Origin: Streptacidiphilus sp. P02-A3a
Lineage (GTDB): Bacteria > Actinomycetota > Actinomycetes > Streptomycetales > Streptomycetaceae
Assembly: GCF_014084105.1 (NCBI RefSeq)
Contig: NZ_CP048289.1
Coordinates: 3,977,922 to 4,041,921 of the forward strand
Length of the DNA: 64,000 bases
Direction: 5' to 3'
In this document: positions 8,101 to 61,900 of the stretch, in pieces
How the letters are laid out: each line of letters begins with the position of its first letter
Position numbering within the stretch: the first letter of the stretch is position 1
Position numbers and translations under genes: made by a program
Notes under the pieces: model-generated
What the model saw: only the letters and a program-made list of their open reading frames with translations
What the model was told of the DNA's origin: nothing
Database searches by the model: none

Positions 8101-11100
8101 GGTCACCCCGGTCGCGTCCGGCGACCCGGTGGTCATCGTCGGCATCGGCTGCCGCTTCCCCGGCGGGATCGACAGCCCGGAGGCGATGTGGCAGCTGCTG
8201 GCGACGGGCGGCGACGCCATCGGCGGCTTCCCGGCCGACCGGGGCTGGGACCTCGTCGCCCTGCTCGACGCCACCCCCGGCCGGACCCTGACGTCCTACA
8301 CGACCGAAGGCGGGTTCGTGGCCGGGGCGGCGGACTTCGACCCGGCGTTCTTCCGGATCTCGCCGCGTGAGGCGCTGGCGATGGACCCGCAGCAGCGGTT
8401 GCTGCTGGAGACCTCGTGGGAGGCGCTGGAGCATGCCGGGCTCGACCCGGTCTCCCTGCGCGGCTCGCTGACCGGCGTCTTCGCCGGTGCCGCCGCCTCC
8501 GGCTACGCCGAGCAGGCCGGGTTCGACGAGGAGTCGGCCGGGCACCTGATCACCGGCAACGTCACCAGCGTGATCTCCGGCCGGATCTCCTACACGCTGG
8601 GCCTGGAGGGCCCGGCGGTGACCGTGGACACCGCCTGCTCGTCCTCGCTGGTCGCCCTGCACCTGGCAGCGCAGGCGCTGCGCGCGGGTGAGTGCGACCT
8701 GGCGCTGGCCGGTGGCGTCATGGTGATCACCAACCCGGGCGAGTTCATCGGCTTCTCCCAGCAGGGCGCGCTCGCGGCCGACGGCCGCTGCAAGGCCTTC
8801 GCCGCCGAGGCGGACGGCATGGGCCTGGCCGAGGGCGCCGGAATGCTGCTGCTGGAGCGGCTGTCCGACGCCCGCCGCAACGGCCACACCGTGCTCGCCA
8901 CGGTGGCCGGTAGCGCGGTGAACCAGGACGGCGCCTCCAACGGCCTGTCCGCGCCCAACGGTCCCTCGCAGCAGCGGGTGATCCGGGCCGCCCTGGCCAA
9001 CGCCGGGCTGGAGCCCGGCGACGTGGATGCGGTCGAGGGCCACGGCACCGGCACCCGACTCGGCGACCCGATCGAGGCCCAGGCGATCCTGGCGACCTAC
9101 GGCCAGGACCGGCCCGAGGGACGCCCGGTGCTGCTGGGCTCGGTGAAGTCCAACATCGGCCACGCGCAGCAGGCGGCGGGCGCGGCCGGGGTCATCAAGA
9201 TGGTCCTCGCCCTGCGACACGGCCTGCTCCCGGCCACGCTGCACGCCGACGCGCCGTCACCGCAGGTCGACTGGAGCACCGGTGATGTCCGGCTGCTCTC
9301 CGAGGCGGCGGACTGGCAGGCGAACGGCCGCCCGCGCCGGGCCGGGGTCTCGGCCTTCGGCATCAGCGGTACCAACGCCCACATGATCCTGGAGGAGGCC
9401 CCGACCGAGGCCGAGGCCGAGCCCGAGCCCGAGCTCAGCGACGACGCGCCGCTCGCGCCGCCGGTGCCGGTGCCGGTGCTGTCCGAAGGGACGGCCTGGT
9501 TGGTCTCCAGCCAGACCGCGACCGGACTCACGGCGGCGGCCCACCGGCTGCGCCACCACCTGGCGGAGCGCCCGGAGCTGAACCCGGTCGACGTCGGCTG
9601 GTCGCTGGCGACCACCCGGTCCACCTTCGAGCACCGCGCCGTCATCGCCGCGAGCGACTCCGCCGACCTGCTGGCCGGACTGTCGGCGCTGGCCGCCGAA
9701 CGCCCGGCCGCCGCCCTGGTGAGCGGGGTGGCCGCGACGACCGGTGAGGTGGTGTTCGTCTTCCCGGGTCAGGGTTCGCAGTGGGTGGGTATGGGTCGGG
9801 AGTTGGCCGCTTCGTCGCCGGTGTTCGCGGCGCGGTTGGCGGAGTGTGAGCGGGCGCTGGCGCCGTACGTGGATTGGTCGCTCGCCGACGTGCTGGCTGG
9901 CGTTGCGGGTGCGCCCGGCTTCGACCGGGTCGACGTCGTCCAGCCGGTGTTGTGGGCGGTGATGGTGTCGTTGGCGGCGGTGTGGCAGGCGGCTGGGGTG
10001 CGGCCGGATGCGGTGGTGGGGCATTCGCAGGGTGAGATCGCGGCGGCTGTGGTGGCGGGGATCCTCAGCCTGGAGGATGCCGCGCGGGTGGTGGCGTTGC
10101 GCAGTCGGGTGTTGATTGCGTTGTCGGGTCGTGGCGGGATGTTGTCGTTGGCGGAGTCGTCGGCGGCGGTCACTGCCCGGGTGGCGCCGTGGGCCGATCG
10201 GGTGTCGGTGGCTGCGGTCAACGGGCCTGGGGCGACGGTGGTTTCGGGTGATCCCGAGGCGTTGGCGGGGGTGTTGGCGGCTGCTGAGGTTGATGGTGTG
10301 CGGGCGCGGATGCTGCCGGTGGACTACGCCTCGCACGGCCCGCAGGTGGACGAGTTGCGGGAGGAGATCCTGAAGCTGCTGGCGGGGATCGCCCCGCAGT
10401 CTGCTCGGGTGCCGATGGTGTCGGCGATGACGGGTGAGTTCCTGGAGGGCCCGGAGTTGGATGCCGGGTACTGGTATGCCAGCCTGCGGGCCCCGGTGGA
10501 GTTCTCGCGGGCGGTTGAGGTGCTGGGCCGGGCCGGGTACGGGGTGTTCGTCGAGAGCTCGGCGCACCCGGTGCTGACCTCGGCGATCAGCGACACCCTC
10601 GAAGGCCTTGCCGATGTTGCCGATCCGGTGGTGTCCGGGACGTTGCGTCGTGACGATGGTGGCTCGGCGCGGTTGTTGGCCTCGTTGGCGGAGGTCCATG
10701 TGCGTGGTGTGGTCGTGGACTGGGCGGGGGTGTTGCCGGAGGGTGTGCGGGTCGGGTTGCCGACCTATGCGTTCCAGCGGCAGCGCTACTGGCCGAAGCC
10801 GGTCGCTGCGGCCCGGCGCGTGGATGACGTGGCGGCCACGGCCGAGGAGAGCGCCTTCTGGGCCGCGGTCACCGGGGGCGACCTGGACAGCCTCGCGCAG
10901 ACCCTGGCCGTCGACGGCGAGCGGTTGCAGCAGGTGCTGCCCGCACTGGCCGCCTGGCGGCAGCGCGAGCGCGGCAAGTCCGCCGTCGCCGACTGGCGTT
11001 ACCGCATCCTCTGGACCCCGCTCGCGCCGCTCGGCCGGGCTGCGCTGTCCGGCACCTGGCTGGTCGTGGCCCCGGCCGGAGCGGACCACGAGTCCCTGAC

Positions 11101-14100
11101 CGCCGCCGTCAGCCAGGCCCTGACCGACGGCGGCGCCGAGGTGCTGCTCGCCGAGATCCCGGCGGGCGAGGTGGACCGGTCGGCGCTGGCCGCCCGGATC
11201 ACCGCCGTCACCGTCCCGGTGGCGGGCGTACTCTCGCTGCTGGCCCTGGACGAGTCCCCGCTGGCCGGAACTCCGGTCGTGGCCCGGGGGTTGGCCGGGA
11301 CGATGGGCCTGGTGCAGGCCCTCGGCGACGCCGGGACCACCGCCCCGCTGTGGGCGCTGACCTCGGGCGCGACCGCCTCCGGCGACGCGCCGGTCGCCCA
11401 GGCGCAGGCGCAGACCTGGGCCTTCGGCCGGGTCGTCGCGCTGGAGCATCCGGACCGCTGGGGCGGTCTGATCGACCTGGCGCCGACCTGGGACGCGCGC
11501 ACCGCCGAGCGGCTGGTCGCGGTGCTCGCCGGATGCGGTGAGGACCAGGTCGCGATCCGCGCCAACGGCGTCCTCGGCCGCCGCATGGTCCGCGCGGCCC
11601 GCTCGGTCTCCGGCGGCCAGCGCTGGCGTCCCGGCGGCAGCGTACTGATCACCGGTGGTACCGGTGGTGTCGGTGGGCATGTGGCCCGGTGGCTGACCGA
11701 GCGGGAGGCACCGAGGGTGGTGCTGTCCAGTCGGTCGGGTCCGGGTGCGGCGGGTGCGGTGGCGTTGGCCGCCGAGTTGGCGGCTGCCGGTACGGCGGTG
11801 GACGTGCTTGCCGGTGATGTCGGCGACCGGGCCCAGACGGCCGGTCTGCTGGCCTGGATCGACGCCCACGGACCCGGATTGAGCTCGGTCATGCACGCGG
11901 CCGGAGCCGCCCTCGGCGGCCCGCTGGAGCTGATGACCCCGGACGACCTGGCCGCCGTGCTCCAGGCCAAGGCGGGCGGCGCGGCCTACCTGGACGAGCT
12001 GACCGCCGACCGGGAGCTGGACGCGTTCGTCGGCTTCTCCTCCGGCGCGAGCACCTGGGGCAGCGCCCAGCTGTCCGGCTACGCCGCCGCCAACGCCGCC
12101 CTGGACGCGCTGGTCGAGGACCGGCGGGCGCGCGGCCTGGCCGGTACCTCGGTCGCCTGGGGCCTGTGGGGTGGCGGCGGCATGGGCGAGGGCGTCGCCG
12201 GTGAGGTGCTGCAACGGCTCGGCGTCCGCGAGATGGACGCGGGACTGGCCGTCGGCGCGCTGGCGGCGATCCTGGACGCCGGGGAGGACCTGGTCACCGT
12301 CTCGGACATCGACTGGGACCGGTTCGCCACCATCTTCACCGTGCAGCGGCCCAGCCGGCTGCTGGCCGACCTGCCGGAAGCCCAGCAGGCGCTCACCGAC
12401 ACCCGGGCGTCCGCTCCGGGCGCTGAAGCGGTCGTCGGGACCGAGCTGGGCCGACGGCTGACCGGCCTCGACCGGGCCGAGCAGGAGCGGATCCTGACCG
12501 ACCTGGTCCGCTCCGAGGCCGCCGCCGTGCTCGGGCACGCGTCCGCCGACGCGGTACCGCCCGCGCGGGCCTTCAAGGACCTCGGCTTCGACTCGCTCAC
12601 CGCCGTCGACCTGCGCACCCGGCTGAACACCGCCACCGGTCTCAAGCTGCCCGCCACCCTGGTCTTCGACTACCCGACCCCGGCTGCGGCCGTGCAGTTC
12701 CTACGGACCGAACTGCTCGGCATCCTGGCCGACTCCGAGTCCCCGGTCGCGGCCCGCGCGGCAGCCGACCCCGGCGAGCCGATCGCCATCGTCGGCATGG
12801 GCTGCCGGTTCCCCGGCGGCGTCCGCGAGCCGGAGGACCTGTGGGACCTGCTGGCCACCGGTACCGACGCGATCGCCGGGTTCCCGACGGACCGTGGCTG
12901 GGACGTGGACGGGATCTACGCCGGTCTCGACGCCGACACGTCCACCGCGCTGGTCGGTGGATTCGTCTACGACGCGGCCGACTTCGACCCCGGATTCTTC
13001 GGGATCAGCCCGCGTGAGGCGATCACCATGGACCCGCAGCAGCGGCTGCTGCTGGAGACCGCCTGGGAGGCCGTGGAGCGCGCCGGGATCGACCCGGCCT
13101 CGCTCAAGGGCACCGCCACCGGGGTCTTCGCCGGTGCCGCCTTCGGTGGGTACGGCATGGGCCTGGCCGAGGAGCCCGGCACCGAGGGCTACATGCTCAT
13201 CGGCGGCCTCAGCTCGGTGATCTCCGGCCGGGTCTCCTACACGCTGGGCCTGGAGGGCCCGGCGGTGACCGTCGACACCGCCTGCTCCTCGGCGCTGGTC
13301 GCGCTGCACCTGGCCTGCCAGGCGCTGCGCGCGGGCGAGTGCTCGATGGCGATGGCCGGTGGTGTGGCGATCATGGCCACCCCGGCCCCGTTCTCCGAGT
13401 TCTCCCGCCAGCGGGGCCTGGCCTTCGACGGCCGGTCCAAGGCGTTCGCGGCCGACGCGGACGGCATCGGCTGGGGCGAGGGCGCCGGGATGCTGGTCCT
13501 GGAGCGGCTCTCCGACGCCCAGCGGAACGGGCACCAGGTGCTCGCGGTGGTGGCCGGGAGCGCGATCAACCAGGACGGCGCCAGCAACGGCATCACCGCG
13601 CCGAACGGTCCCTCGCAGCAGAAGGTCATCCGGTCCGCGCTGGCCAACGCCGGACTGCGGGCTGACGAGGTGGACGCGGTCGAGGCGCACGGTACCGGCA
13701 CGGTCCTCGGCGACCCGATCGAGGCCCAGGCGCTGCTGGCGACGTACGGGCAGAACCGGCAGGAGAACCAGCCGCTGTGGCTCGGCTCGGTGAAGTCCAA
13801 CATCGGCCACACCCAGACTGCGGCCGGGGTCGCCGGGATCATCAAGATGGTGCTGGCCCTCCAGCACCAGGAACTGCCGCGCACCCTGCACGCGGAGGTG
13901 CCCAGCCCGCACGTGGACTGGTCGACGGGTGACGTCCGGCTGCTGACCGAACCGGTCGCCTGGCCGGTCAACGGCCGTCCCCGGCGAGCCGGGGTGTCGG
14001 CCTTCGGCGTCAGCGGCACCAACGTGCACGCCATCCTGGAGGAGGCTCCGGCCTTCGTCCCGGAGGAGGTGCCGTCGGTCGATCCGGTGGTGTCGCCGGT

Positions 14101-17100
14101 GTTGCCGGTGTTGGTCGGGTCGGTGGCGGCGTGGCCGGTGTCGGCGCGGTCGGGTGCCGGGTTGGTGGCGCAGGCGGGTCGGTTGGGTGAGTTCCTGCTG
14201 GCTCGGCCGGAGTTGGGCACGGCCGAGGTGGCGTGGTCGTTGGTGACCAGCCGGTCGACGTTCGAGCACCGGACGGTCGTCATCGGCGCGGACCGCACGG
14301 AGTTGCTGGCCGGACTGTCGGCAGTGGCCGCCGGTCGCCCGTCGCCGGGCGTGGTGTCGGGCGTGGTCTCCGCCGGTGGCGGTGCCGGTCGGGTGGTGTT
14401 CGTGTTCCCGGGTCAGGGTTCGCAGTGGGTGGGTATGGGTCGGGAGTTGGCCGCTTCGTCGCCGGTGTTCGCGGCGCGGTTGGCGGAGTGTGAGCGGGCG
14501 TTGGCGCCGTTTGTGGACTGGTCGTTGGTCGAGGTGCTGGCTGGTATTGAGGGTGCGCCTGGGTTTGATCGGGTGGATGTGGTGCAGCCGGTGTTGTGGG
14601 CGGTGATGGTGTCGTTGGCGGCGGTGTGGCAGGCGGCTGGGGTGCGGCCGGATGCGGTGGTGGGGCATTCGCAGGGTGAGATCGCGGCGGCCGTGGTGGC
14701 GGGGATCCTCAGCCTGGAGGATGCCGCGCGGGTGGTGGCGTTGCGCAGTCGGGTGTTGATTGCGTTGTCGGGTCGTGGCGGGATGTTGTCGTTGGCGGAG
14801 TCGGTGTCCGAGGTGCGGTCGCGGATCGAGGCCTGGGGTGCGCACCGGGTGTCGGTGGCTGCGGTCAACGGGCCTGGGGCGACGGTGGTTTCGGGTGATC
14901 CCGAGGCGTTGGCGGGGGTGTTGGCGGCTGCTGAGGTTGATGGTGTGCGGGCGCGGATGCTGCCGGTGGACTACGCCTCGCACGGTCCGCAGGTGGACGA
15001 GTTGCGGGAGGAGATCCTGGCGCTGCTGGCGGGGGTCGCGCCGCAGTCTGCTCGGGTGCCGATGGTGTCGGCGATGACGGGTGAGTTCCTGGAGGGCCCG
15101 GAGTTGGATGCCGGGTACTGGTACGCGAGTCTGCGAGCCCCGGTGGAGTTCTCGCGGGCGGTCGAGGTGCTGGGTCGGGCCGGGTACGGGGTGTTCGTCG
15201 AGAGCTCGGCGCACCCGGTGCTGACCAACGCGATCAGCGACACCCTCGACCGGGTCGCCGAGGAGAGCGTTTCCGGTCTCGTCGCGTCTGCCCCGGTGGT
15301 GGCCGGGACGTTGCGCCGGGACGACGGCGGCCCGGCGCGGCTGCTGGCGTCCCTGGCCGAGGTCCACGGGCGCGGCGTCGATGTCGACTGGACCACGGTG
15401 GTCCCCGAGGCCCAGGTGGTGCAGCTGCCGACCTACGCCTTCCAGCGGCAGCGGTACTGGCCGAGGCAACTGCCGGTCGCGATCGCCGCTGCCGAGAGCG
15501 CCGGGACCGGCGTCGAGGCGCGGTTCTGGAGCGCGGTCGAGGCCGGTGACCTGGACAGCCTGTCCCGGACGCTGGACGTGGACGAGCAGTACCTGGGCGA
15601 GGTGCTCCCCGCCCTGGCGTCCTGGCGGCAGCGCGAACGCGACGAGTCGCTGACGGCGGACTGGCGGTACCGGGTCACCTGGAAGCCGCTGCGCGACCCC
15701 AGCCCGGCCGTGCTGTCCGGTACCTGGCTGCTGGTCGTCCCGGCCGAACTGGCCGACGGTGAGCTGGCGGCGGCCTGCGCGCGGACGCTGAGCGACCGGG
15801 GCGCGCAGGTGGTGCTCGCCGAGGTCGCCGCGACCGAGCTGGACCGGCGGACCCTGGCGGCGAAGGTCGGCGAACTGCTCGGCTCGGCCCCGGCGGCCGG
15901 GGTGCTGTCGCTGCTCGGCACGGACGAGACGCCGCTGGCCGACCGACCGTTGGTCCCGGCCGGTGTCGCCGGAACCCTGGCCCTGTTCCAGGCCCTCGGC
16001 GACGCCGGGGCGACCGCGCCGATGTGGGCGGTCACCCGGGGTGCCGTCACCGCCGGGGCCACCGACCGTGCGGCCGGTCCGGTCCAGGCGCAGGTGTGGG
16101 GTCTGGGTCGGACGATCGGGGTGGAGCACCCGGATCGCTGGGGCGGTCTGATCGACCTGCCGCCGGTGCTGGACGACCGCGCGGCGGCCCGGCTCGCCGG
16201 GGCCCTCGCGGACAGGTCCGAGGACCAGGTGGCGATCCGGACCGGCGGGCTGCTGGCCCGGCGCCTGGTCCGGGCGACCCCGCGCCGCAACGGCGACAGC
16301 GCCTGGACGCCGTGCGGCACGGTGCTGCTGACCGGCGCCAGCGGCGCGATCGGCCCGGACCTGGCCGCCTGGATGGCCGACTCGGGCGTCCCGCACGCGG
16401 TGCTGTGCAGCCGCCGGGGCCCGGAGACGCCGGGTGCGGCCCGGCTCGCCGCGCTGCTGGCCGAGGCCGGTTCGGCGGTCACCATGGCCGCCTGCGACGT
16501 GGTGGACCGGGAGGCGCTGGCCGGTCTGCTGGCCTGGATCCCGACCTTCGCCCCGCCGCTGTCCGCGGTGATCCACGGCGCGGTCGCGGTCGAGCTGATG
16601 AGCGTCGACCGGACCGACGTCGACCACCTGGCGCTGGCGCTGGGCGCCAAGGTCGGCGGGGCGACGCACCTGGACGAGCTCACCGCCGACCTCGACCTGG
16701 AAGCCTTCATCCTGTTCTCCTCGATCAGCGCCACCTGGGGCGTCGGCGAGCACGCGACCTACGCGGCGGCCAACGCCCACCTGGACGCGCTGGCGGAGAA
16801 CCGGCGGGCCCGGGGCCTGCCGGCGACCTCGGTCGCCTGGGGCGTGTGGAGCTCCGGTGGCCGCTTCGACGAGACCGACCCGGCCGACGCCGGGGCTGAG
16901 CCCGCACGCCCGCAGAGCCTGGTCCCGGAGCGGCTGCGGCGGCAGGGCCTGCGGCTGCTGGACCCGGAGCGCGCGCTGACCGTGCTCGGGCAGGTACTCG
17001 CCGACCAGGAGACCGTGCTGGCGGTCGCCGACGTCGACTGGCCGCAGTTCTCGGCGGTGTTCAACGCCGTCCGCTCCTGGCCGCTGCTGGACGAGATCCC

Positions 17101-20100
17101 GGAGGCGCGTCAGGCCGACGCCGGTACCACCGGCGCCGCCGTGGTGGCCTCGGGCGACGGCGCGGCGCTGCTGGAACGCCTGGTCGGCGTGTCGCCCGCG
17201 CAGCGCGAGCGGATCGTGACCGACCTGGTCGGCAGTCATGCGGCGGCCGTCCTCGGACACAGCTCGGCCGAGGCCGTGGACGCGGCCCGGGCCTTCCGGG
17301 AGATGGGCTTCGACTCGCTGACGGCAGTGGACCTGCGGGGACGGCTGAACCAGGCCACCGGACTGACGCTGCCCTCCACGGTGGTCTTCGACTACCCGTC
17401 ACCGGCCATCCTGGCTCGCCAGATCGTCACGCAACTGCTGGGAACACAGCAGCAGTTGGTGGCCGAGTCGCGGGTCGTGCCGGTGTCGGCGAGCGACCCG
17501 GTGGTGATCGTCGGCATGGGTTGCCGCTTCCCGGGTGGGATCGACAGCCCGGAGGCGATGTGGCAGCTGCTGGCGACGGGCGGTGACGCCATCGGCGGCT
17601 TCCCGGCGGACCGGGGCTGGGACCTGGCCGGTCTGCTGGACACGGCGCCCGGATCGGCCTCCTCCTCGGCCACCCGCGAGGGCGGGTTCGTGGCCGGGGC
17701 GGCGGACTTCGACCCGGCGTTCTTCCGGATCTCGCCGCGTGAGGCGCTGGCGATGGACCCGCAGCAGCGGTTGCTGCTGGAGACCTCGTGGGAGGCGCTG
17801 GAGCATGCCGGGCTCGACCCGGTCGCCCTGCGTGGCTCGCTGACCGGCGTCTTCGCCGGTGCCGCCGGATCCGGCTACGCCGGACAGGCCGGGTTCGACG
17901 AGGAGTCGGCCGGGCACCTGATCACCGGCAACGTGACCAGCGTGATCTCCGGCCGGATCTCCTACACGCTGGGCCTGGAGGGTCCGGCGGTCACCGTCGA
18001 CACGGCCTGCTCCTCGGCGCTGGTGTCGCTGCACCTGGCGGCGCAGGCGCTGCGGGCCGGTGAGTGCGACCTGGCGCTGGCCGGTGGCGTGATGGTGATC
18101 ACCGACCCGGCCGAGTTCATCGGCTTCTCGCAGCAGGGTGCGCTGGCCCTGGACGGCCGCTGCAAGGCCTTCTCCGCCGACGCGGACGGCATGGGCCTGT
18201 CCGAGGGCGCGGGCATGATCGTGCTGGAGCGCCTGTCCGACGCCCGCCGCAACGGCCACACCGTGCTCGCCACGGTGGCCGGTAGCGCCATCAACCAGGA
18301 CGGCGCCTCCAACGGCCTCTCGGCGCCGAACGGCCCCTCGCAGCAGCGGGTGATCCGGGCCGCCCTGGCCAACGCCGGGATCGGCGCCGCCGATGTGGAC
18401 GCGGTCGAGGGCCACGGCACCGGTACCCGGCTCGGCGACCCGATCGAGGCCCAGGCGATCCTGGCGACCTACGGTCAGGACCGGCCGGAGGGACGGCCGT
18501 TGTGGCTGGGCTCGGTGAAGTCCAACATCGGCCACGCGCAGCAGGCGGCCGGCGCGGCCGGGATCATCAAGATGGTCCTCGCGCTCCAGCACGGCCTGCT
18601 CCCGGCCACGCTGCACGCCGACGCCCCGTCACCGCAGGTCGACTGGACCGTCGGTGACGTCGAGCTGCTGACCGAGGCGGTGGACTGGAAGGCCAACGGC
18701 CACCCGCGCCGGGCCGGGGTCTCGGCCTTCGGCATCAGCGGCACCAACGCCCACATCATCCTCGAAGAACCCCCCGCCGCCCTCGACCAGGACACCTCGG
18801 ACGAGCCCGGCCCCGGCGACCAGGAGCAGCCGGCGCCGTCGGTACTGACCGGTGCGACGACGTCCTGGCTGGTCTCGGCGCAGACCCCGGCCGGGCTGCG
18901 GGCGCAGGCCGCGCGGCTGGTCGGTTACCTGTCCGCGCACCCGGACCGCGACCCGGCCGCTGTCGGCTGGTCGCTGGCGACCACCCGGTCCACCTTCGAG
19001 CACCGGGCGGTCGTCACCGGCGCCCACGGCGACGACCTGATCGCCGGGCTGTCGGCGCTGGTGTCCGAGCGTCCGGCGGCGACGCTGGTCAGCGGCACCG
19101 CCGGAGCGACCGGCCAGGTGGTGTTCGTCTTCCCGGGTCAGGGGTCGCAGTGGTTGGGCATGGGTCGGGAGTTGGCTCAGAGCAGTCCGGTGTTCGCGGC
19201 GCGGTTGGCGGAGTGCGAGCGGGCGCTGGCGCCGTACGTGGACTGGTCGCTGACCGAGGTGCTGAACGGTGCCGAGGGTGCGCCCGGCTTCGACCGGGTG
19301 GACGTCGTCCAGCCGGTGTTGTGGGCGGTGATGGTGTCGTTGGCGGCGGTGTGGCAGGCGGCCGGGGTCGAGCCGGACGCGGTGGTGGGGCACTCGCAGG
19401 GCGAGATCGCCGCCGCCGTGGTCGCCGGGGCCCTGACGCTGGAGGACGCGGCCGCCATCGTGGCGTTGCGCAGCCGGGCGCTGATCGCGCTGTCGGGTCG
19501 TGGCGGGATGCTGTCGCTGGCGGAGTCGGTCTCCGAGGTGGAGGCACGGATCGGGCGCTGGGGCGACCGGGTGTCGGTGGCTGCGGTCAACGGGCCTGGG
19601 GCGACGGTGGTTTCGGGTGATCCCGAGGCGCTGGCCGAGGTCCTGGCCGGGGCCGAGGGGGTCCGGGCGCGGATGCTGCCGGTGGACTACGCCTCGCACG
19701 GTCCGCAGGTCGACCAGTTGCGGGAGGAGATCCTGAAGCTGCTGGCCGGGGTCGCCCCGCGTCCCGCGCGGGTGCCGATGGTGTCGGCGATGACGGGTGA
19801 GTTCCTGGAGGGCCCGGAGTTGGATGCCGGGTACTGGTACGCCAGTCTGCGGGCCCCGGTGGAGTTCTCGCGGGCGGTCGAGGTGCTGGGTCGGGCCGGG
19901 TACGGGGTGTTCGTCGAGAGCTCGGCGCACCCGGTGCTGACCAACGCGATCGGCGACACTCTCGAAGGCCTTGCCGACGTCGCCGATCCGGTGGTGTCCG
20001 GGACGTTGCGTCGTGACGATGGTGGCTCGGCGCGGTTGTTGGCCTCGTTGGCGGAGGTCCATGTGCGTGGTGTGGTCGTGGACTGGGCGGGGGTGTTGCC

Positions 20101-22351
20101 GGAGGGTGTGCGGGTCGGGTTGCCGACCTATGCGTTCCAGCGGCAGCGCTACTGGCCGAAGCCGGTCGCTGCGGCCCGGCGCGTGGATGATGTGGCGGCC
20201 ACGGCCGAGGAGAGCGCCTTCTGGGCCGCGGTCACCGGCGGCGACCTGGACAGCCTCGCGCAGACCCTGGAGGTCGACAGCGAGCGCCCGTTCAGCGAGG
20301 TGCTGCCGGCGCTGGCCGCCTGGCGGCAGCGCGAGCGCGGCGAGTCGGCGGCGGCCGACTGGCGCTACCGGATCAGCTGGACCCCGGTCGCCGAACCCGC
20401 CCCGACGACCCTGGTGGGGACCTGGCTGCTGGTCACCCCCGCCGGTGCGGCCGACGGCGGCCTGACCGCGCCCAGTGTCGCGGCGCTGACCGACCGGGGC
20501 GCCGAGGTACTGGTCGCCGAGATCGGCCCCGGCGCGCTGGACCGCACGGCGCTGCGGGCCCGTATCACCGGGACGCTGGAGGAGTCCGGCGACGGACTGC
20601 CGCTGGCCGGAATCGTGTCGCTGCTGGCCCTGGACGCCTCGCCGCTGCCCGAGTCACCGGTCGTGGCCCGGGGGTTGGCCGGGACGATGGGCCTGGTCCA
20701 GGCCCTCGGCGACGCCGGGATCGACGCGCCGCTGTGGCTGCTGACCTCGGGTGCGATGGTGGCCGTGGCCGGTGAGGTGCCGGTCAGTCAGGCGCCCGCG
20801 CAGTCCTGGGCCTTCGGCCGGGTCGCCGGTCTGGAGCATCCGGACCGCTGGGGCGGTCTGATCGACCTGCCGCCGACCTGGGACGCGCGCACCGCCGAGC
20901 GGCTGGTCGCGGTGCTCGCAGGATGCGGTGAGGACCAGGTCGCGATCCGCTCCGGCGCGGTGCTCGGCCGCCGCCTGGTCCGCGCGCCGAAGCCGACCCG
21001 GTCGGGCCCGGGCTGGAAGCCGGGCGGCAGCGTGCTGGTGACCGGTGGTACCGGTGGTGTCGGTGGGCATGTGGCGCGGTGGCTGACCGAGCGGGAGGCG
21101 CCGAGGGTGGTGCTGTCCAGTCGGTCGGGTCCGGGTGCGGCGGGTGCGGTGGCGTTGGCCGCCGAGTTGGCGGCTGCCGGTACGGCGGTGGACGTGCTTG
21201 CCGGTGATGTCGGCGACCGGGCCCAGACGGCCGGTCTGCTGGCCTGGATCGACGCCCACGGACCCGGGTTGAGCTCGGTCCTGCATGCGGCGGGCGCCGG
21301 TCTCGGCGGTCCGCTGGACGCCATGGTGACCGCGGACCTGACCGGATCGCTCCAGGCCAAGGCCGGTGGCGCGAGCTACCTGGACGAGCTGACGGCGGAT
21401 CGGGAGCTGGACGCGTTCGTGCTGTTCTCCTCCGGCGCCGCGGCCTGGGGCAGCGGCCAGCTGTCCGGCTACGCCGCCGCCAACGCCGCCCTCGACGTCC
21501 TGGTCGAGGACCGGCGGGCGCGGGGCCTGGTGGGGACCTCGGTCGCCTGGGGCCTGTGGGGTGGCGGCGGCATGGGCGAGGGCGTCGCCGGTGAGGTGCT
21601 GCAACGGCTCGGCGTCCGCGAGATGGACCCGGTGGTCGCGGTCGGCGCGCTGGCGGCGGTCATGGACGCCGGGGAGAGCCTGATCGCGGTCTCCGACACC
21701 GACTGGAGCCGGTTCACGCCGGTCTTCACCGTGCAGCGGCCCAGCCCGCTGCTGGCCGACCTGCCCGAGGCGCAGCAGGCCCTCGGCGACTCCGGCACGC
21801 CCGACGCGGGCCCGGAGCCGGGCGGAACGGCGCTGAGTCAGCGGCTGGACGGACTCAGCCGCCCCGAGCAGGACCGGATCCTGACCGAACTGGTCCGGGC
21901 CGAGGCGGCGGCCGTCCTCGGCTACGGCTCCGTCGACGCGGTACCGGCCGAGCGGGCGTTCAAGGACCTCGGCTTCGACTCGCTGACCGCCGTCGACCTG
22001 CGTACCCGGCTGAATGCGGCGACCGGTCTCAAACTGCCCGCCACACTCGTTTTCGACTATCCCACGCCCGCTGTCCTTGCCGATTTCATCCGGTCCAAGG
22101 CCGTCAACGAACAGACCGACTACGCCATCGCGGTGGCGGAACTGAAGAAACTGCAGGCCATCCTCTCCAAAATCAGCTGGAACAGCGAGGAGCGCTTCGA
22201 CATCACGTCCCGACTCGACTCGATCGGCCAGGAACTGCGCACCCAGGACGAGGGCGGCGCTCCGGAGACCGATGACGAGTTCGACTCGGCGACCGACGAC
22301 GAGATGTTCGACTTCGTTGAAAAAGAGCTCCGCGCCGCCGACTTCGATTGA
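3290..22351 (+). CDS. Four-module type I PKS (4x KS-AT-KR-ACP), gene B
   Basis: A 6353-residue multidomain PKS; about 1590 residues per module fits four ketoreducing modules. Residues 1-33 are an N-terminal coiled-coil docking helix (LFDYLKKASAELQ). KS domains begin near residues 34, 1612, 3163 and 4736, with active Cys at 204, 1783, 3332 and 4907. AT Ser residues are at 673, 2246, 3794 and 5369; all four ATs have GHSQG and YASH, the methylmalonyl signature. KR Tyr residues are at 1376, 2931, 4491 and 6061. The KRs have Trp at -8 from Tyr and no LDD; modules 1 and 3 also have His at -3 (A2-type), modules 2 and 4 do not (A1-type). ACP Ser residues are at 1552, 3102, 4676 and 6231. The C-terminal docking tail starts near residue 6270. 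The ATG at 3290 has AGGGAG six bases upstream. Expected output is four consecutive 2-methyl-3-hydroxy units with alternating methyl configuration. Confidence 0.98.
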   Translation: MDSQEKLFDYLKKASAELQETRKRLRRMEAAEQEPIAIVSLGCRYPGGIRDPQSFWDVVVSGTDAIAGFPNDRGWEAYRDSAPEGTSTDFAHQGGFVYDAAEFDAGFFGISPREALAMDPQQRLLLEVAWESLERARIEPRSLRGSSTGVFVGASFVGYGQGLVEADTGSEGYLLTGSQTAMISGRVAYTLGLEGPALTVDTACSSSLVALHLACQALRSGDCSLALAGGVVVMVTPGAFAEFSKQQGMAADGRSKAFAGAADGMGWGEGAGLLVLERLSDARRNGHPVLALIAGTAANQDGASNGLTAPNGPSQQRVIREALTNARVRSDQVDVVEAHGTGTVLGDPIEAQAILATYGQSRPEGRPLWLGSVKSNIGHTQAAGGVAGVIKMVLAMQHDLMPRTLHVDVPTPKVDWSVGDVQLLTEAVPWPVDEQPRRAGVSAFGASGTNVHVIVQEAPKAGEAEGELAEGPAPEAATPAAAPVLSEGTAWLVSSRTANGLRAQAERLAEFTRHRATWETQDLTDIGWSLATTRSVFEHRAVVRGANRDELLSGLTALAADQPAAAAVSGVVAAGRGRSRVAFVFPGQGSQWVGMGRELVASSPVFAARLAECEGALAPFVDWSLVEVLAGVEGAPGFDRVDVVQPVLWAVMVSLAAVWQAAGVEPDAVVGHSQGEIAAAVVAGILSLEDAAKVVALRSQALTALSGRGGMLSLAESAAAVTTRVAPWADQVSVAAVNGPAATVVSGTPEALREILAACEHDGVRARLLPVDYASHGPQVDELREEILGLLAGITPQPARLPMVSAMTGELLEGPELDAGYWYASLRAPVEFARAVEVLARSRYGVFVETSAHPVLTTSITAAFESLAATEQTEGLAGPAPVVTGTLRRDDGGAARLLASLSEAHVQGVAVDWTAVLPAGQRIELPTYAFQRQHFWPEPVPATAANGPAALGEHDSAAQARFWAAVENGDVDALADTLALDGERLNDVVPALASWRRRERDDAATGGWRYRVSWTPVPDPASAALHGTWLVVAPSGDSETELRAACLRALTARGAEVRLAEALPGAVDQASLAARITDALAGTPQAELAGVVSLLALDATPLPEQPLVTSGVGGTLGLVQALGAAGISAPLWVLTSGAVATAPGELLTSPTQAQVWGLGRVAGLEHPDRWGGLIDLPPVLDARAANRLGAVLAGCGEDQVAIRAAGIVGRRLVRTAPSSSTTPWQPRGTVLVTGVSGEIGPKLAHWLADAGARRLTLVSRRGPMVPGAAAVAAALATAGTPVTVAVCDVTDRDAVAGLLDWIDRSGPALSTVFHGAMAVELLTLADTGPDQLELALGAKVTGATHLDELTADLELDEFVLFSSIAAIWGVSEHGAYAAANAHLDALAENRRARGLPATSVAWGVWDTGQESHEGDRAISVIPERLRRQGLRLLDPERALSALGQVLADDETALSVADVDWPRFSAVFNSMRSWRLLDEIPEARQAEAAPAGTAVVTTGEAAELLGRLVGATPGQRERVVTELVRAHAAAVLGHASLDAVDSGQAFRDMGFDSLTAVELRSRLNQATGLTLPSTVVFDYPSPQVLAQQILTQLLGSQQLAPTASRVTPVASGDPVVIVGIGCRFPGGIDSPEAMWQLLATGGDAIGGFPADRGWDLVALLDATPGRTLTSYTTEGGFVAGAADFDPAFFRISPREALAMDPQQRLLLETSWEALEHAGLDPVSLRGSLTGVFAGAAASGYAEQAGFDEESAGHLITGNVTSVISGRISYTLGLEGPAVTVDTACSSSLVALHLAAQALRAGECDLALAGGVMVITNPGEFIGFSQQGALAADGRCKAFAAEADGMGLAEGAGMLLLERLSDARRNGHTVLATVAGSAVNQDGASNGLSAPNGPSQQRVIRAALANAGLEPGDVDAVEGHGTGTRLGDPIEAQAILATYGQDRPEGRPVLLGSVKSNIGHAQQAAGAAGVIKMVLALRHGLLPATLHADAPSPQVDWSTGDVRLLSEAADWQANGRPRRAGVSAFGISGTNAHMILEEAPTEAEAEPEPELSDDAPLAPPVPVPVLSEGTAWLVSSQTATGLTAAAHRLRHHLAERPELNPVDVGWSLATTRSTFEHRAVIAASDSADLLAGLSALAAERPAAALVSGVAATTGEVVFVFPGQGSQWVGMGRELAASSPVFAARLAECERALAPYVDWSLADVLAGVAGAPGFDRVDVVQPVLWAVMVSLAAVWQAAGVRPDAVVGHSQGEIAAAVVAGILSLEDAARVVALRSRVLIALSGRGGMLSLAESSAAVTARVAPWADRVSVAAVNGPGATVVSGDPEALAGVLAAAEVDGVRARMLPVDYASHGPQVDELREEILKLLAGIAPQSARVPMVSAMTGEFLEGPELDAGYWYASLRAPVEFSRAVEVLGRAGYGVFVESSAHPVLTSAISDTLEGLADVADPVVSGTLRRDDGGSARLLASLAEVHVRGVVVDWAGVLPEGVRVGLPTYAFQRQRYWPKPVAAARRVDDVAATAEESAFWAAVTGGDLDSLAQTLAVDGERLQQVLPALAAWRQRERGKSAVADWRYRILWTPLAPLGRAALSGTWLVVAPAGADHESLTAAVSQALTDGGAEVLLAEIPAGEVDRSALAARITAVTVPVAGVLSLLALDESPLAGTPVVARGLAGTMGLVQALGDAGTTAPLWALTSGATASGDAPVAQAQAQTWAFGRVVALEHPDRWGGLIDLAPTWDARTAERLVAVLAGCGEDQVAIRANGVLGRRMVRAARSVSGGQRWRPGGSVLITGGTGGVGGHVARWLTEREAPRVVLSSRSGPGAAGAVALAAELAAAGTAVDVLAGDVGDRAQTAGLLAWIDAHGPGLSSVMHAAGAALGGPLELMTPDDLAAVLQAKAGGAAYLDELTADRELDAFVGFSSGASTWGSAQLSGYAAANAALDALVEDRRARGLAGTSVAWGLWGGGGMGEGVAGEVLQRLGVREMDAGLAVGALAAILDAGEDLVTVSDIDWDRFATIFTVQRPSRLLADLPEAQQALTDTRASAPGAEAVVGTELGRRLTGLDRAEQERILTDLVRSEAAAVLGHASADAVPPARAFKDLGFDSLTAVDLRTRLNTATGLKLPATLVFDYPTPAAAVQFLRTELLGILADSESPVAARAAADPGEPIAIVGMGCRFPGGVREPEDLWDLLATGTDAIAGFPTDRGWDVDGIYAGLDADTSTALVGGFVYDAADFDPGFFGISPREAITMDPQQRLLLETAWEAVERAGIDPASLKGTATGVFAGAAFGGYGMGLAEEPGTEGYMLIGGLSSVISGRVSYTLGLEGPAVTVDTACSSALVALHLACQALRAGECSMAMAGGVAIMATPAPFSEFSRQRGLAFDGRSKAFAADADGIGWGEGAGMLVLERLSDAQRNGHQVLAVVAGSAINQDGASNGITAPNGPSQQKVIRSALANAGLRADEVDAVEAHGTGTVLGDPIEAQALLATYGQNRQENQPLWLGSVKSNIGHTQTAAGVAGIIKMVLALQHQELPRTLHAEVPSPHVDWSTGDVRLLTEPVAWPVNGRPRRAGVSAFGVSGTNVHAILEEAPAFVPEEVPSVDPVVSPVLPVLVGSVAAWPVSARSGAGLVAQAGRLGEFLLARPELGTAEVAWSLVTSRSTFEHRTVVIGADRTELLAGLSAVAAGRPSPGVVSGVVSAGGGAGRVVFVFPGQGSQWVGMGRELAASSPVFAARLAECERALAPFVDWSLVEVLAGIEGAPGFDRVDVVQPVLWAVMVSLAAVWQAAGVRPDAVVGHSQGEIAAAVVAGILSLEDAARVVALRSRVLIALSGRGGMLSLAESVSEVRSRIEAWGAHRVSVAAVNGPGATVVSGDPEALAGVLAAAEVDGVRARMLPVDYASHGPQVDELREEILALLAGVAPQSARVPMVSAMTGEFLEGPELDAGYWYASLRAPVEFSRAVEVLGRAGYGVFVESSAHPVLTNAISDTLDRVAEESVSGLVASAPVVAGTLRRDDGGPARLLASLAEVHGRGVDVDWTTVVPEAQVVQLPTYAFQRQRYWPRQLPVAIAAAESAGTGVEARFWSAVEAGDLDSLSRTLDVDEQYLGEVLPALASWRQRERDESLTADWRYRVTWKPLRDPSPAVLSGTWLLVVPAELADGELAAACARTLSDRGAQVVLAEVAATELDRRTLAAKVGELLGSAPAAGVLSLLGTDETPLADRPLVPAGVAGTLALFQALGDAGATAPMWAVTRGAVTAGATDRAAGPVQAQVWGLGRTIGVEHPDRWGGLIDLPPVLDDRAAARLAGALADRSEDQVAIRTGGLLARRLVRATPRRNGDSAWTPCGTVLLTGASGAIGPDLAAWMADSGVPHAVLCSRRGPETPGAARLAALLAEAGSAVTMAACDVVDREALAGLLAWIPTFAPPLSAVIHGAVAVELMSVDRTDVDHLALALGAKVGGATHLDELTADLDLEAFILFSSISATWGVGEHATYAAANAHLDALAENRRARGLPATSVAWGVWSSGGRFDETDPADAGAEPARPQSLVPERLRRQGLRLLDPERALTVLGQVLADQETVLAVADVDWPQFSAVFNAVRSWPLLDEIPEARQADAGTTGAAVVASGDGAALLERLVGVSPAQRERIVTDLVGSHAAAVLGHSSAEAVDAARAFREMGFDSLTAVDLRGRLNQATGLTLPSTVVFDYPSPAILARQIVTQLLGTQQQLVAESRVVPVSASDPVVIVGMGCRFPGGIDSPEAMWQLLATGGDAIGGFPADRGWDLAGLLDTAPGSASSSATREGGFVAGAADFDPAFFRISPREALAMDPQQRLLLETSWEALEHAGLDPVALRGSLTGVFAGAAGSGYAGQAGFDEESAGHLITGNVTSVISGRISYTLGLEGPAVTVDTACSSALVSLHLAAQALRAGECDLALAGGVMVITDPAEFIGFSQQGALALDGRCKAFSADADGMGLSEGAGMIVLERLSDARRNGHTVLATVAGSAINQDGASNGLSAPNGPSQQRVIRAALANAGIGAADVDAVEGHGTGTRLGDPIEAQAILATYGQDRPEGRPLWLGSVKSNIGHAQQAAGAAGIIKMVLALQHGLLPATLHADAPSPQVDWTVGDVELLTEAVDWKANGHPRRAGVSAFGISGTNAHIILEEPPAALDQDTSDEPGPGDQEQPAPSVLTGATTSWLVSAQTPAGLRAQAARLVGYLSAHPDRDPAAVGWSLATTRSTFEHRAVVTGAHGDDLIAGLSALVSERPAATLVSGTAGATGQVVFVFPGQGSQWLGMGRELAQSSPVFAARLAECERALAPYVDWSLTEVLNGAEGAPGFDRVDVVQPVLWAVMVSLAAVWQAAGVEPDAVVGHSQGEIAAAVVAGALTLEDAAAIVALRSRALIALSGRGGMLSLAESVSEVEARIGRWGDRVSVAAVNGPGATVVSGDPEALAEVLAGAEGVRARMLPVDYASHGPQVDQLREEILKLLAGVAPRPARVPMVSAMTGEFLEGPELDAGYWYASLRAPVEFSRAVEVLGRAGYGVFVESSAHPVLTNAIGDTLEGLADVADPVVSGTLRRDDGGSARLLASLAEVHVRGVVVDWAGVLPEGVRVGLPTYAFQRQRYWPKPVAAARRVDDVAATAEESAFWAAVTGGDLDSLAQTLEVDSERPFSEVLPALAAWRQRERGESAAADWRYRISWTPVAEPAPTTLVGTWLLVTPAGAADGGLTAPSVAALTDRGAEVLVAEIGPGALDRTALRARITGTLEESGDGLPLAGIVSLLALDASPLPESPVVARGLAGTMGLVQALGDAGIDAPLWLLTSGAMVAVAGEVPVSQAPAQSWAFGRVAGLEHPDRWGGLIDLPPTWDARTAERLVAVLAGCGEDQVAIRSGAVLGRRLVRAPKPTRSGPGWKPGGSVLVTGGTGGVGGHVARWLTEREAPRVVLSSRSGPGAAGAVALAAELAAAGTAVDVLAGDVGDRAQTAGLLAWIDAHGPGLSSVLHAAGAGLGGPLDAMVTADLTGSLQAKAGGASYLDELTADRELDAFVLFSSGAAAWGSGQLSGYAAANAALDVLVEDRRARGLVGTSVAWGLWGGGGMGEGVAGEVLQRLGVREMDPVVAVGALAAVMDAGESLIAVSDTDWSRFTPVFTVQRPSPLLADLPEAQQALGDSGTPDAGPEPGGTALSQRLDGLSRPEQDRILTELVRAEAAAVLGYGSVDAVPAERAFKDLGFDSLTAVDLRTRLNAATGLKLPATLVFDYPTPAVLADFIRSKAVNEQTDYAIAVAELKKLQAILSKISWNSEERFDITSRLDSIGQELRTQDEGGAPETDDEFDSATDDEMFDFVEKELRAADFD
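10621..10915 (+). repeat. AT/KR junction repeat, copy in B2
   Basis: About 295 bases match 19984-20278 in module B4 with two mismatches (near 10830 and 10886). The block covers the AT end, the linker and the start of the dimerization element, and uses TTG/GTG/GGT-rich codons in its first two thirds. Confidence 0.88.
11651..11890 (+). repeat. KR core repeat, copy in B2
   Basis: 240 bases encoding the nucleotide-binding half of the KR match 21041-21280 with three mismatches (offset 9390). The following catalytic half of the KR is less conserved between the two modules. Confidence 0.88.
12721..17440 (+). other. Module B3: KS-AT(YASH)-KR(A2)-ACP
   Basis: KS 12776-14050 (Cys 13283, FGIS class, ITMDPQQ variant). 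AT about 14390-15450 (Ser 14669, YASH 14972-14983). KR with Trp 16736, His 16751 and Tyr 16760 (A2 fingerprint), with a long lid after the catalytic core. ACP Ser 17315. The KS-AT linker and AT (about 14080-15250) have TTG-rich codon use unlike the flanking sequence. Confidence 0.92.
18120..18300 (+). repeat. KS segment identical to 27901-28081
   Basis: 181 bases of the B4 KS, in the GFSQQGALA region that marks the FRIS class, are identical to the C2 KS at an offset of 9781. This is the bimodule period across the gene B/C junction. Confidence 0.88.
19311..19659 (+). repeat. AT segment identical to 189-537
   Basis: Second copy of the 349-base identical AT block, in module B4. Sequence on either side (for example the TEVLNGAEG region just before) differs from module A. 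Confidence 0.9.
19984..20278 (+). repeat. AT/KR junction repeat, copy in B4
   Basis: Partner of 10621-10915 at an offset of 9363. The two copies separate after this block, with an insertion in the KR structural part of about 27 bases in one of them. Confidence 0.88.
21041..21280 (+). repeat. KR core repeat, copy in B4
   Basis: Partner of 11651-11890. Conservation stops soon after the codons for LSSV, supporting a limited conversion tract within otherwise diverging duplicates. Confidence 0.88.
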
Positions 22352-22368
22352 TTCGCAAAAGACTTCTT

Positions 22369-22373
22369 AGGGG
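22369..22373 (+). promoter_or_regulatory. Ribosome binding site of gene C (decides start)
   Basis: AGGGG lies nine bases before the ATG at 22383 and only three before the TTG at 22377, so the ATG is the likely start. The intergenic gap is 31 nt. Confidence 0.75.
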
Positions 22374-22382
22374 TAGTTGAAC

Positions 22383-42194: not shown

Positions 42195-42225
42195 CGAGTG
42201 TCAAGGCCGACGCCGGACCCAGTGC

Positions 42226-42231
42226 GAGGAG
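42226..42231 (+). promoter_or_regulatory. Ribosome binding site of gene D (decides start)
   Basis: GAGGAG lies eight bases before the ATG at 42240. It rules against the in-frame GTG at 42198, which would add 14 residues (including three Pro) unlike a docking helix and would lie 3 nt after the gene C stop. Confidence 0.8.
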
Positions 42232-42239
42232 CGGTTCCC

Positions 42240-58931
<16,692 letters not shown>

Positions 58932-58976
58932 TGCCCTGCGAACTGACGCTCTGTGAACTCGTGCTTGGCAAAACCT

Positions 58977-58981
58977 GGAGG
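58977..58981 (+). promoter_or_regulatory. Ribosome binding site of gene E
   Basis: GGAGG lies eight bases before the ATG at 58990 in the 58-nt gap after gene D, the widest gap in the window. No inverted repeat that would suggest a terminator is apparent there. Confidence 0.8.
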
Positions 58982-58989
58982 TTGTCGTA

Positions 58990-61900
58990 ATGGCCATGCC
59001 GGCCGACAAGGTTCTCGACGCCCTGCGGGCTTCCCTCAAGGAAACGGATCGGCTCCGCCAGCGCAACCGGCAGCTGACCGCCTCGTCCTGGGCGCCGATC
59101 GCCATCGTCGGCATGGGCTGCCGCTTTCCGGGCGGGGTGCACAACCCGGAGGAGCTCTGGGACCTGGTGGCCGCCGACGGTGACGCGATCAGCGGGTTCC
59201 CCGAGGACCGCGGCTGGGAGGCGGTCCTCTCCGGCACCGAGACCAGGTACGTGAAGACCGGCGGGTTCGTCCAGGAAGCGCCGCGGTTCGACCCCGGCTT
59301 CTTCGGCATCAGCCCGCGTGAGGCGCTGGCGATGGACCCGCAGCAGCGGATGCTGCTGGAGGTCACCTGGGAGACGCTGGAGCAGGCCGGGATCGACCCG
59401 GCCACCCTGCGCGGATCCAGGACCGGCGTCTTCGCCGGTGGCACCAACTCCGGCTACGGCGTGAGCGTCGCCGGGATCGAGGGCACCGAGGGCTACATGC
59501 TCACCGGCGGCCTGACCGCCGTGATCTCCGGCCGGATCTCGTACACGCTGGGCCTGGAGGGCCCGGCGGTGACCGTGGACACGGCCTGCTCCTCGGCGCT
59601 GGTGGCGCTGCACCTGGCGGTGCAGTCGCTGCGCTCGCAGGAGTGCACGATGGCGCTGGCCGGTGCGGTCACCGTACTGGCCAACCCCGACTCCTTCGCC
59701 GACTTCGCCGAGCAGGGCGGCCTGGCGGCGGACGGCCGATGCAAGGCCTTCGCCGGTGCCGCCGACGGCATCGGCTGGAGCGAGGGCGCGGGCATGTTCC
59801 TGCTGGAGCGCCTCTCCGACGCGCGCCGCAACGGGCACCCGGTGCTCGCGGTGATCCGTGGCAGCGCGGTCAACCAGGACGGTGCCAGCAACGGCCTGTC
59901 CGCCCCCAACGGCCCGGCCCAGCAGCGGGTGATCAGGGCCGCGCTGTCCAACGCCCGGCTGTCCCCGGCCGACGTGGACGCGGTCGAGGCGCACGGCACC
60001 GGCACCGTGCTCGGCGACCCGATCGAGGCCCAGGCGATCCTGGCCGCCTACGGCCGCGACCGCACCCCGGAGCAGCCGCTCTGGCTCGGCTCGGTGAAGT
60101 CCAACCTCGGCCACACCGGGGCCGCCGCCGGCGCCGCGGGCCTGATCAAGATGGTGCAGGCCCTGCGCCACCAGCGACTGCCGCGCACCCTGCACGTGGA
60201 CGAGCCCACGCCCCGGGTCGACTGGTCGGCGGGCGAGGTCCGGCTGCTGACCGACCCCCGGCCGTGGACCCCCGGCGCGGCGGACGAGACCGGCAGGGCC
60301 CGGCCGCGCCGCGCCGGGATCTCCGCCTTCGGCATCAGCGGCACCAACGCCCACCTCATCGTCGAGGAGGCCCCGGCCGACCTCCCGACCGAGGCCGAGG
60401 GCGGCGACACCCCGGCCCCCGAGGCCGGGGCCGAGCGGCCCAGGGCCCTCAACGGCGGACCGGCCTGGCTGGTCTCCTCCCGGACGGCCGCCGGACTCGC
60501 CGCCCAGGCGGAGCGGCTGTCCGGGTTCGGTGTCGCGGAGCTGGACCCGGTGGACGTCGGCTGGTCGCTGGCCACCACCCGGGCCGCCTTCGAGCACCGC
60601 GCCGTCGTCATCGGCGCGGACCGCCCGGAACTGGCCGCGGGCCTGACCGCGCTGGCCACCGGCGAACCGTCGCCCGGCCTGGTCACCGGCGCGCTCCCGG
60701 CCGGAGGCAGTGTGGGCCGCACGGTCTTTGTGTTTCCTGGGCAGGGTGGTCAGTGGGTGGGGATGGGGTTGGAGTTGGCGGCGGTGTCGCCGGTGTTCGC
60801 GGCGCGGTTGGCGGAGTGTGGGGAGGCGTTGGCGCCGTTTGTGGAGTGGGATCTGTTTGAGGTTTTGGGTGATGCGGACAGTCTGTCGCGGTTGGATGTG
60901 GTGCATCCGGCGTTGTGGGCGGTGATGGTGTCGTTGGCGGCGGTGTGGGAGGCGGCGGGGGTTCGTGCGGATGCGGTGGTCGGGCATTCGCAGGGGGAGA
61001 TCGCGGCGGCGTGTGTGGCTGGGGTGTTGTCGTTGGCTGATGGTGCGCGGGTGGTGGCGCGTCGGGGTCAGGCGATGGTGGGGTTGGCGGGTCGGGGTGG
61101 GGTGTTGTCGATTGCGGCGTCGTTGGGGGTGGTGGAGGAGCGGTTGCGGGGTGGGGATGGCCGGGTGAGTGTGGCGGCGGTCAACGGTCCTGCGGCGGTG
61201 GCTGTTTCGGGTGTGGTGGAGGCGTTGGAGGTGTTGGCGGCGGAGTGTGAGCGGGACGGGGTGCGGACGCGGTTCGTGCCGATGGACTACGCGCCGCACG
61301 GTCCGCAGGTGGAGGGTATTCGGGAGGCGGTGCTGTCCGGGTTGGAGGGGATCGCGCCGGGTGTGGCGGTGGTTCCGATGGTGTCGGGGATGACCGGGGA
61401 GTATCTGGACGGCGCGGAGGCGGGTGCGGGGTACTGGTACGACAGCCTGCGTTCCACCGTCCAGTTCACGCGTGGGGTCGAGCGGTTGGGGCGGGACGGG
61501 TACGGGGTGTTCGTCGAGGTGTCGCCGCATCCGGTGCTGACCTCGGGGACGGCCGCGACGTTGGAGGGGCTGGGGTTGGAGCCGGTGGTGACCGGCACGC
61601 TGCGGCGTCAGGACGGCGGCGCGGCACGGTTGTTGGCCTCACTGGCGGCAGTGCACGTACACGGGGTGGAGGTCGACTGGTCGGCGGTACTGCCCGCCGG
61701 ACACCGGATCGACCTGCCCACCTACGCGTTCCAGCACCAGCGCTACTGGCCCTCGTCGTTGGCCGGGGGCGTGGGCAACCTGCGTGCGGCGGGCCTGAAC
61801 TCGGTCGGGCACCCGCTGCTCGGCGCCGCCGTGGAACTGGCCGACGGCGAGGGCCTGCTGCTGACCGGGCAACTGTCGGTGCGGGCCCAACCCTGGCTGG

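What the first reader, a model, noticed from the sequence alone, without database searches (positions are those of the whole stretch)
8123..60380. KS class tracks the stereotype of the upstream KR
Four KSs (B2, B4, C2, D2) share Arg in FFRIS, a GFSQQGALA segment, GMxLxEG and GHAQQ. The other eight (B1, B3, C1, C3, C4, D1, D3, E1) have FFGIS, and most have EF-type segments and GWGEG. The four are exactly those that receive a chain from an A2-type KR; the eight follow A1, B-type or dead KRs. There are 4 of 4 and 8 of 8 matches. This suggests that the evolving unit is AT-KR-ACP-KS, with KS gatekeeping for the 2S-methyl intermediate.
Basis: partly seen in the sequence, partly recalled or inferred. 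Interest (0 to 1): 0.75.

Follow-up and report, generated by a model that had tools for sequence, protein, structure and literature searches.

The report
Ketosynthases matched to upstream methyl stereochemistry
In this giant antibiotic-type assembly line, the enzyme that receives each growing chain carries a known signature for the handedness of the methyl group made just before it; the signature is real but already published, and the conspicuous arginine mark is only a family heirloom.

Summary
Only KS B2, B4, C2 and D2 have FFRIS, GFSQQGALA, GMxLxEG and GHAQQ, and all four follow A2-type KRs (4 of 4, 8 of 8). But B1-B2, B3-B4 and C1-C2 are three copies of one ~9.4 kb bimodule, and FFRIS arose about once on the KS tree, so these are not 12 independent cases.

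In 372 KSs with a readable upstream module, only one layer of the signature generalises. The Trp of GWGEG (residue 234) is replaced after 49 of 49 A2 methylmalonyl modules, but after only 2 of 20 A1/B ones. Outside the window's own PKS family it is 36 of 36 against 1 of 14; FFRIS there is 0 of 36. Positions 232/234 are the published KR-associated tunnel residues L234/W236, already mutated experimentally (PMC12636015).

Arg77 and QQGALA are marks of descent. FFRIS follows many non-A2 modules, including KS E2 of this same PKS, 420 bases past the window end. There the break lies between ACP and KS, so AT-KR-ACP-KS is not an inviolable unit.

Verdict: a new member of a known kind. Gatekeeping for an epimerised alpha-methyl is well supported; "FRIS tracks A2" is not a rule.

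The parts
8126..9406 (+). KS B2, FRIS class; Arg77 codon 8354-8356, GFSQQGALA 8750-8776, Met232 codon 8819, Leu234 codon 8825, GHAQQ in 9152-9187
17498..18778 (+). KS B4, FRIS class (90% identical to B2)
27270..28559 (+). KS C2, FRIS class (86-91% identical to B2/B4)
47103..48380 (+). KS D2, FRIS class (81-82% identical to the other three)
6971..7525 (+). KR of module B1, A2-type (W141, H146, VELL), feeds KS B2
   Evidence: A2 pattern match at 7391-7429
16316..16870 (+). KR of module B3, A2-type (WGVGEH, VELM), feeds KS B4
26085..26639 (+). KR of module C1, A2-type (WGVGEH, VELM), feeds KS C2
45912..46466 (+). KR of module D1, A2-type (WGVSDH, VELT), feeds KS D2
3392..4669 (+). KS B1, FFGIS, Trp234, after A1 KR of the preceding gene
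12779..14053 (+). KS B3, FFGIS, Trp234, after A1 KR
22485..23759 (+). KS C1, FFGIS, Trp234, after A1 KR
32010..33287 (+). KS C3, FFGIS, Trp234, after A1 KR
36684..37964 (+). KS C4, FFGIS, Trp234, after A1 KR in the only malonyl module of the window (C3)
42342..43616 (+). KS D1, FFGIS, Trp234, after DH + LDD KR (C4)
53433..54707 (+). KS D3, FFGIS but Met232/Met234 and SFSQQQALA; after DH-ER-KR with ER motif GMYP (Tyr)
59095..60378 (+). KS E1, FFGIS, Trp234 (GIGWSEG), after D3 module with a KR lacking the catalytic Tyr
3389..12775 (+). bimodule copy 1 (KS_G-AT-KR_A2-ACP-KS_R-AT-KR_A1-ACP)
   Evidence: self-alignment
12776..22073 (+). bimodule copy 2
   Evidence: 80.6% identical to copy 1 over 9.4 kb
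22482..31912 (+). bimodule copy 3
   Evidence: 81.9% identical to copy 2 over 9.5 kb

Best explanation
Two layers are superposed. (1) A functional substrate-tunnel fingerprint: in KSs that receive a chain with an epimerised (L) alpha-methyl, the Trp of GWGEG (residue 234 here, W236 of the Pik167 KS) is replaced by Leu or Met. Residue 232 (L234 of Pik167) is usually Met, the dimer-interface loop (residues 122-125) has small residues, and the 209-217 segment is often GF- rather than EF-type. This makes room for the inverted methyl and screens against the wrong isomer. (2) Lineage marks, Arg77 (FFRIS), QQGALA and AQQ, that arose once in this PKS family and were copied with the KR-ACP-KS block by bimodule duplication and local homogenisation. 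The 4/4 and 8/8 pattern is therefore a few copies of one ancestral A2-KR/ACP/KS junction carrying a known gatekeeping fingerprint. Sequence correlation is shown here; the gatekeeping mechanism is inferred from published mutants of another PKS.
For: Residues 232 and 234 correspond to L234 and W236 of the Pik167 KS (counting from catalytic Cys171 against C173). PMC12636015 states that L234M is associated with A2 KRs and W236 with A1/B1, and that L234M raised A2 and B2 products 1.7- and 8.1-fold while cutting A1 products by 57-67%. Among methylmalonyl modules without DH, paired within one polypeptide, Trp234 is lost in 49/49 A2 against 2/20 A1/B (p 1e-14). Outside the window's PKS family it is 36/36 against 1/14 (p 4e-11), while Arg77 is 0/36 against 0/14 and QQG is 2/36 against 2/14. 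A2-fed KSs fall into about 15 groups on the KS tree, and all four A2-fed KSs that lack Leu/Met234 pair across a gene boundary. All 16 A2-fed Arg77 KSs form one clade (support 99), which joins the three E2-type KSs (weakly, 34) inside a larger A2-fed group of FFGIS KSs (90-95). Tandem bimodules. Co-migration: KR against downstream KS rho 0.51, against same-module KS 0.30; ACP 0.70 against 0.13; partial tests agree in the whole cluster and in Thermocatellispora. D3, after an ER with Tyr, also lacks Trp234.
Against: W236A in Pik167 abolished almost all product rather than admitting epimerised chains, so the Trp site alone is not a simple gate. On well-supported branches only five independent A2/non-A2 contrasts exist: about three go the predicted way and none the other way, too few for significance. 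Non-Trp234 also occurs after some methylated DH modules and a few malonyl ones. KR types are predicted from motifs, and no product of this PKS is known.
Confidence: 0.85

Rival explanations
1. Pure descent: the four KSs are alike only because they were copied with the A2 KR-ACP by bimodule duplication and gene conversion; none of the differing residues matters for substrate choice.
For: Three bimodule copies at 80-82% DNA identity; FFRIS changes state about twice on the tree; the FRIS KSs are the most conserved block of the repeat, 86-95% between copies.
Against: The 234 change recurs in many separate A2-fed KS groups with different residue pairs (ML, MM, FM, FL, TL) outside this family. Mutation of the neighbouring tunnel residue changes stereo-preference in another PKS (PMC12636015).
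Confidence: 0.1
2. One reading: Arg77 (FFRIS) and QQGALA are themselves stereo-gatekeeping residues for 2S-methyl chains, and AT-KR-ACP-KS is the evolving unit.
For: 4/4 and 8/8 in the window; conserved in orthologues from Thermocatellispora, Herbidospora and other Streptacidiphilus; AT distances tend to follow the downstream KS (rho 0.43, p 0.06).
Against: 50 of 66 A2-fed KSs are FFGIS. Outside the family Arg77 is 0/36 after A2. FFRIS follows 40 modules not called A2, including the same PKS's E2 KS in three orthologues. E1's KR and ACP are of the DH-module type while the E2 KS is of the FRIS type. If the 32 published tunnel positions run in sequence order, starting at the dimer-interface loop (residues 122-125 here), residue 77 lies before the first of them (inference).
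Confidence: 0.05

Closest known systems
Cis-AT KS families sorted by alpha/beta chemistry (Hirsch, Fitzgerald, Keatinge-Clay 2021; read here only as cited in PMC11321453 and PMC12636015)
   Same: KS tunnel residues correlate with the KR type upstream; Trp at the 236-equivalent with A1/B1, Met at the 234-equivalent with A2; dimer-interface loop positions vary with substrate
   Different: The window's KSs additionally carry Arg77, QQGALA and AQQ, which are family-specific here and are not among the fingerprints described in those citing papers
KS stereo-gatekeeping tested in Pik167/Pik127 (PMC12636015)
   Same: Same two positions; AT-KR-ACP-KS units exchanged as blocks; alpha-methyl configuration found critical for the KS
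   Different: Experimental in pikromycin chimeras; no data on FRIS-type KSs
Updated, KS-last module definition (Zhang 2017 and Keatinge-Clay 2017, cited in PMC11321453)
   Same: KR and ACP track the downstream KS in this cluster
   Different: A clear exception at E1/E2, where the break lies between ACP and KS

Membership tests
Cis-AT modular PKS KS downstream of an A2-type KR | upstream KR with W141 + H146, no LDD, active Tyr149 | tested here: met
   KRs of B1, B3, C1 and D1
Cis-AT modular PKS KS downstream of an A2-type KR | extra A2 marks: Leu at the LDD position and missing GM before the lid helix (PMC11228615) | tested here: met
   VELL/VELM/VELT; GVWDTGQ, GVWSSGG and GVWDSGG in place of the GM-containing A1 sequence
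Published A2 gatekeeping fingerprint of the KS | Met at the L234-equivalent and non-Trp at the W236-equivalent | tested here: met
   M232/L234 in B2, B4, C2 and D2; across the set Trp234 lost in 49/49 A2 pairs
Published A2 gatekeeping fingerprint of the KS | KS rejects non-epimerised chains | not testable with these tools
   needs biochemistry; only an analogous KS has been tested
FFRIS as an A2-specific class | present after A2 KRs generally and absent after other KR types | tested here: not met
   16/66 after A2, 40 after other upstream modules; 0/36 after A2 outside the family
AT-KR-ACP-KS evolving unit | KR, ACP and downstream KS share history at every junction | tested here: not met
   correlation overall but broken at E1/E2 in the window's genome and Thermocatellispora
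Substrate-tunnel location of Arg77 and QQGALA | side chains line the tunnel or dimer interface | not testable with these tools
   no coordinates are returned by the tools; solved relatives exist (2QO3, 2HG4, 7S6B)

The most novel reading that the evidence does not exclude
KS residue 234 may read the configuration of the alpha-methyl whichever enzyme sets it: A2 KR, an ER with Tyr, or a B-type KR whose LDD has become V/I-DD in methylated DH modules. KS sequence could then call alpha-stereochemistry where KR motifs fail. In methylated DH modules, V/I-DD KRs are followed by non-Trp234 KSs in 11 of 12 cases against 3 of 20 for LDD, and the FRIS-family E2 KS sits behind such a KR.
Probability: 0.2. 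Interest if true: 0.5.

Novelty: new member of a known kind. Interest (0 to 1): 0.3.

Why it matters
It gives a clean natural series (repeated bimodules with alternating A1/A2 KRs in one PKS, conserved across two actinobacterial orders) for testing stereo-gatekeeping, and it separates functional tunnel residues from inherited marks. The E1/E2 junction is a natural case in which the KS kept an A2-lineage identity after its upstream KR-ACP changed. The rule itself is published, so the gain is confirmation and refinement.

Tried and rejected
A first A2-KR DNA pattern had a gap one base short and found nothing even in the window's genome; it was corrected for (one search is void). A first residue numbering was off by one and the table is discarded; one search replaces it. 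The 2021 KS fingerprint paper is not held, so its content is taken from papers that cite it. No paper with FFGIS and ketosynthase was found. Structure prediction was not run, because the tools return no coordinates and distances to the tunnel could not be measured. A restricted-identity self-BLAST returned nothing because alignments run across whole bimodules; it was replaced.

Full report
What is there. The window is part of a very large cis-AT modular PKS locus in a Streptacidiphilus-type genome: a 9.33 Mb chromosome with modular KSs from about 3.94 to 4.11 Mb. The genus is inferred from contig-length identity between a same-genus genome, G667, and Streptacidiphilus sp. 4-A2. Five genes (A-E) give 12 extension KSs in the window. 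Orthologous clusters exist in Thermocatellispora tengchongensis, Herbidospora sakaeratensis and other Streptacidiphilus.

Observation. FFRIS, GFSQQGALA, GMxLxEG and GHAQQ occur together only in KS B2, B4, C2 and D2, and the KRs just upstream of these are the only four with W141 and H146. They also show the other two A2 marks named in PMC11228615. The claim of 4/4 and 8/8 is correct for the window.

Independence. B1-B2, B3-B4 and C1-C2 are three copies of one 9.4 kb bimodule at 80-82% DNA identity. The FRIS KS is the best conserved stretch between copies, at 86-95%. On a tree of 155 KSs with the tested columns masked, FFRIS changes state twice while upstream A2 status changes 11 times. The window's p of 1/495 therefore overstates the evidence.

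Generality. I paired KSs with upstream modules in the own-genome PKS regions, 76 named loci, FFRIS-pattern regions from Streptomycetales genomes and about 40 A2-KR-pattern regions chosen without regard to the KS. That gave 372 KSs with an upstream module. After A2 KRs, FFRIS is found in 16 of 66, all in the one orthologous family; it also follows 40 modules not called A2. Some of those 40 are iterative-type KSs or have no detected KR. Residue 234 behaves differently: among methylmalonyl beta-modules within one polypeptide, Trp is lost in 49/49 A2 and 2/20 A1/B cases, and outside the family in 36/36 and 1/14. Met232 is 26/36 against 1/14 and a GF-type segment is 23/36 against 1/14. QQG (2/36 against 2/14) and the double Gln of GHAQQ (5/36 against 0/14) are not significant outside the family.

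Match to published work. Counting from the catalytic Cys, residues 232 and 234 are L234 and W236 of the Pik167 KS. PMC12636015 reports that these are KR-type-associated tunnel residues, that L234M favours A2 and B2 products and disfavours A1, that W236A nearly abolishes product, and that alpha-methyl configuration is critical for KS gatekeeping. PMC11321453 reviews the 739-KS study, the dimer-interface loop positions 1-4, and the co-migration of KSs with upstream processing enzymes. The window's pattern is an instance of this.

Unit of evolution. In the window KR distances follow the downstream KS (rho 0.51) more than the same-module KS (0.30). For ACP it is 0.70 against 0.13; AT is weaker at 0.43, p 0.06. 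Partial Mantel tests agree in the whole cluster and in Thermocatellispora. The E1/E2 junction is an exception. E2 KS (window coordinate 64420, outside the window) is FFRIS with M232/L234 and HAQQA, yet E1's KR is 91% identical to the next DH module's KR and E1's ACP is nearest to DH-module ACPs. The same holds in Thermocatellispora, whose E2 KS even has the exact FSQQGALA. So a break between ACP and KS has occurred.

Why E2 may still fit. E1's KR has V/I-DD in place of LDD. Across methylated DH modules, V/I-DD KRs are followed by non-Trp234 KSs in 11 of 12 cases and LDD ones in 3 of 20 (p 3e-5, not tree-corrected, mostly one family). If such KRs epimerise, the FRIS KS at E2 still meets an L-alpha-methyl. 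D3, after an ER with the Tyr that by general knowledge goes with 2S-methyl, also lacks Trp234. This is a lead, not a result.

Limits. KR types are motif predictions and PMC11228615 warns that they weaken in DH modules. Product structures are unknown. Pairings across genes are less certain. The tree contrasts on supported branches are few. Structural positions of Arg77 and QQGALA were not measured.

Noticed in passing
window coordinate 64420 onwards (outside the window; G000:C1:4042341, KS E2): FRIS-family KS directly after a DH + V-DD KR module whose KR and ACP belong to the DH-module family; conserved in Thermocatellispora and another Streptacidiphilus. A natural KS/KR-ACP decoupling.
   Followed up: yes
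window 4889-5489, 9689-10889 (AT regions of B1 and B2): AT-coding stretches with GC skew 0.2-0.4, TA skew 0.3-0.5 and up to 94-98% identity between modules, the signature of GRINS as defined in PMC10394414.
   Followed up: partly
methylated DH modules in the cluster, e.g. E1 KR (from about 63283): V/I-DD instead of LDD in the KR goes with a non-Trp234 downstream KS (11/12 against 3/20), possibly an epimerising B-type.
   Followed up: partly
G000:C1 about 3965100 (KR upstream of the KS at locus coordinate 46062, before the window): KR with WGSAHLGGY, the His one residue earlier than in A2 KRs, followed by a GF-type, Met232/Met234 KS; possible A2 variant, same in Thermocatellispora.
   Followed up: no
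window 47103-53432 (module D2) and 53433-54707 (KS D3): D2 and E1 ATs carry YAPH instead of YASH with GHSQGE; D3 KS after the D2 ER (GMYP) has SFSQQQALA and MM, and Pseudonocardia L066 has SFSQQGALA with MM after an ER module too.
   Followed up: partly
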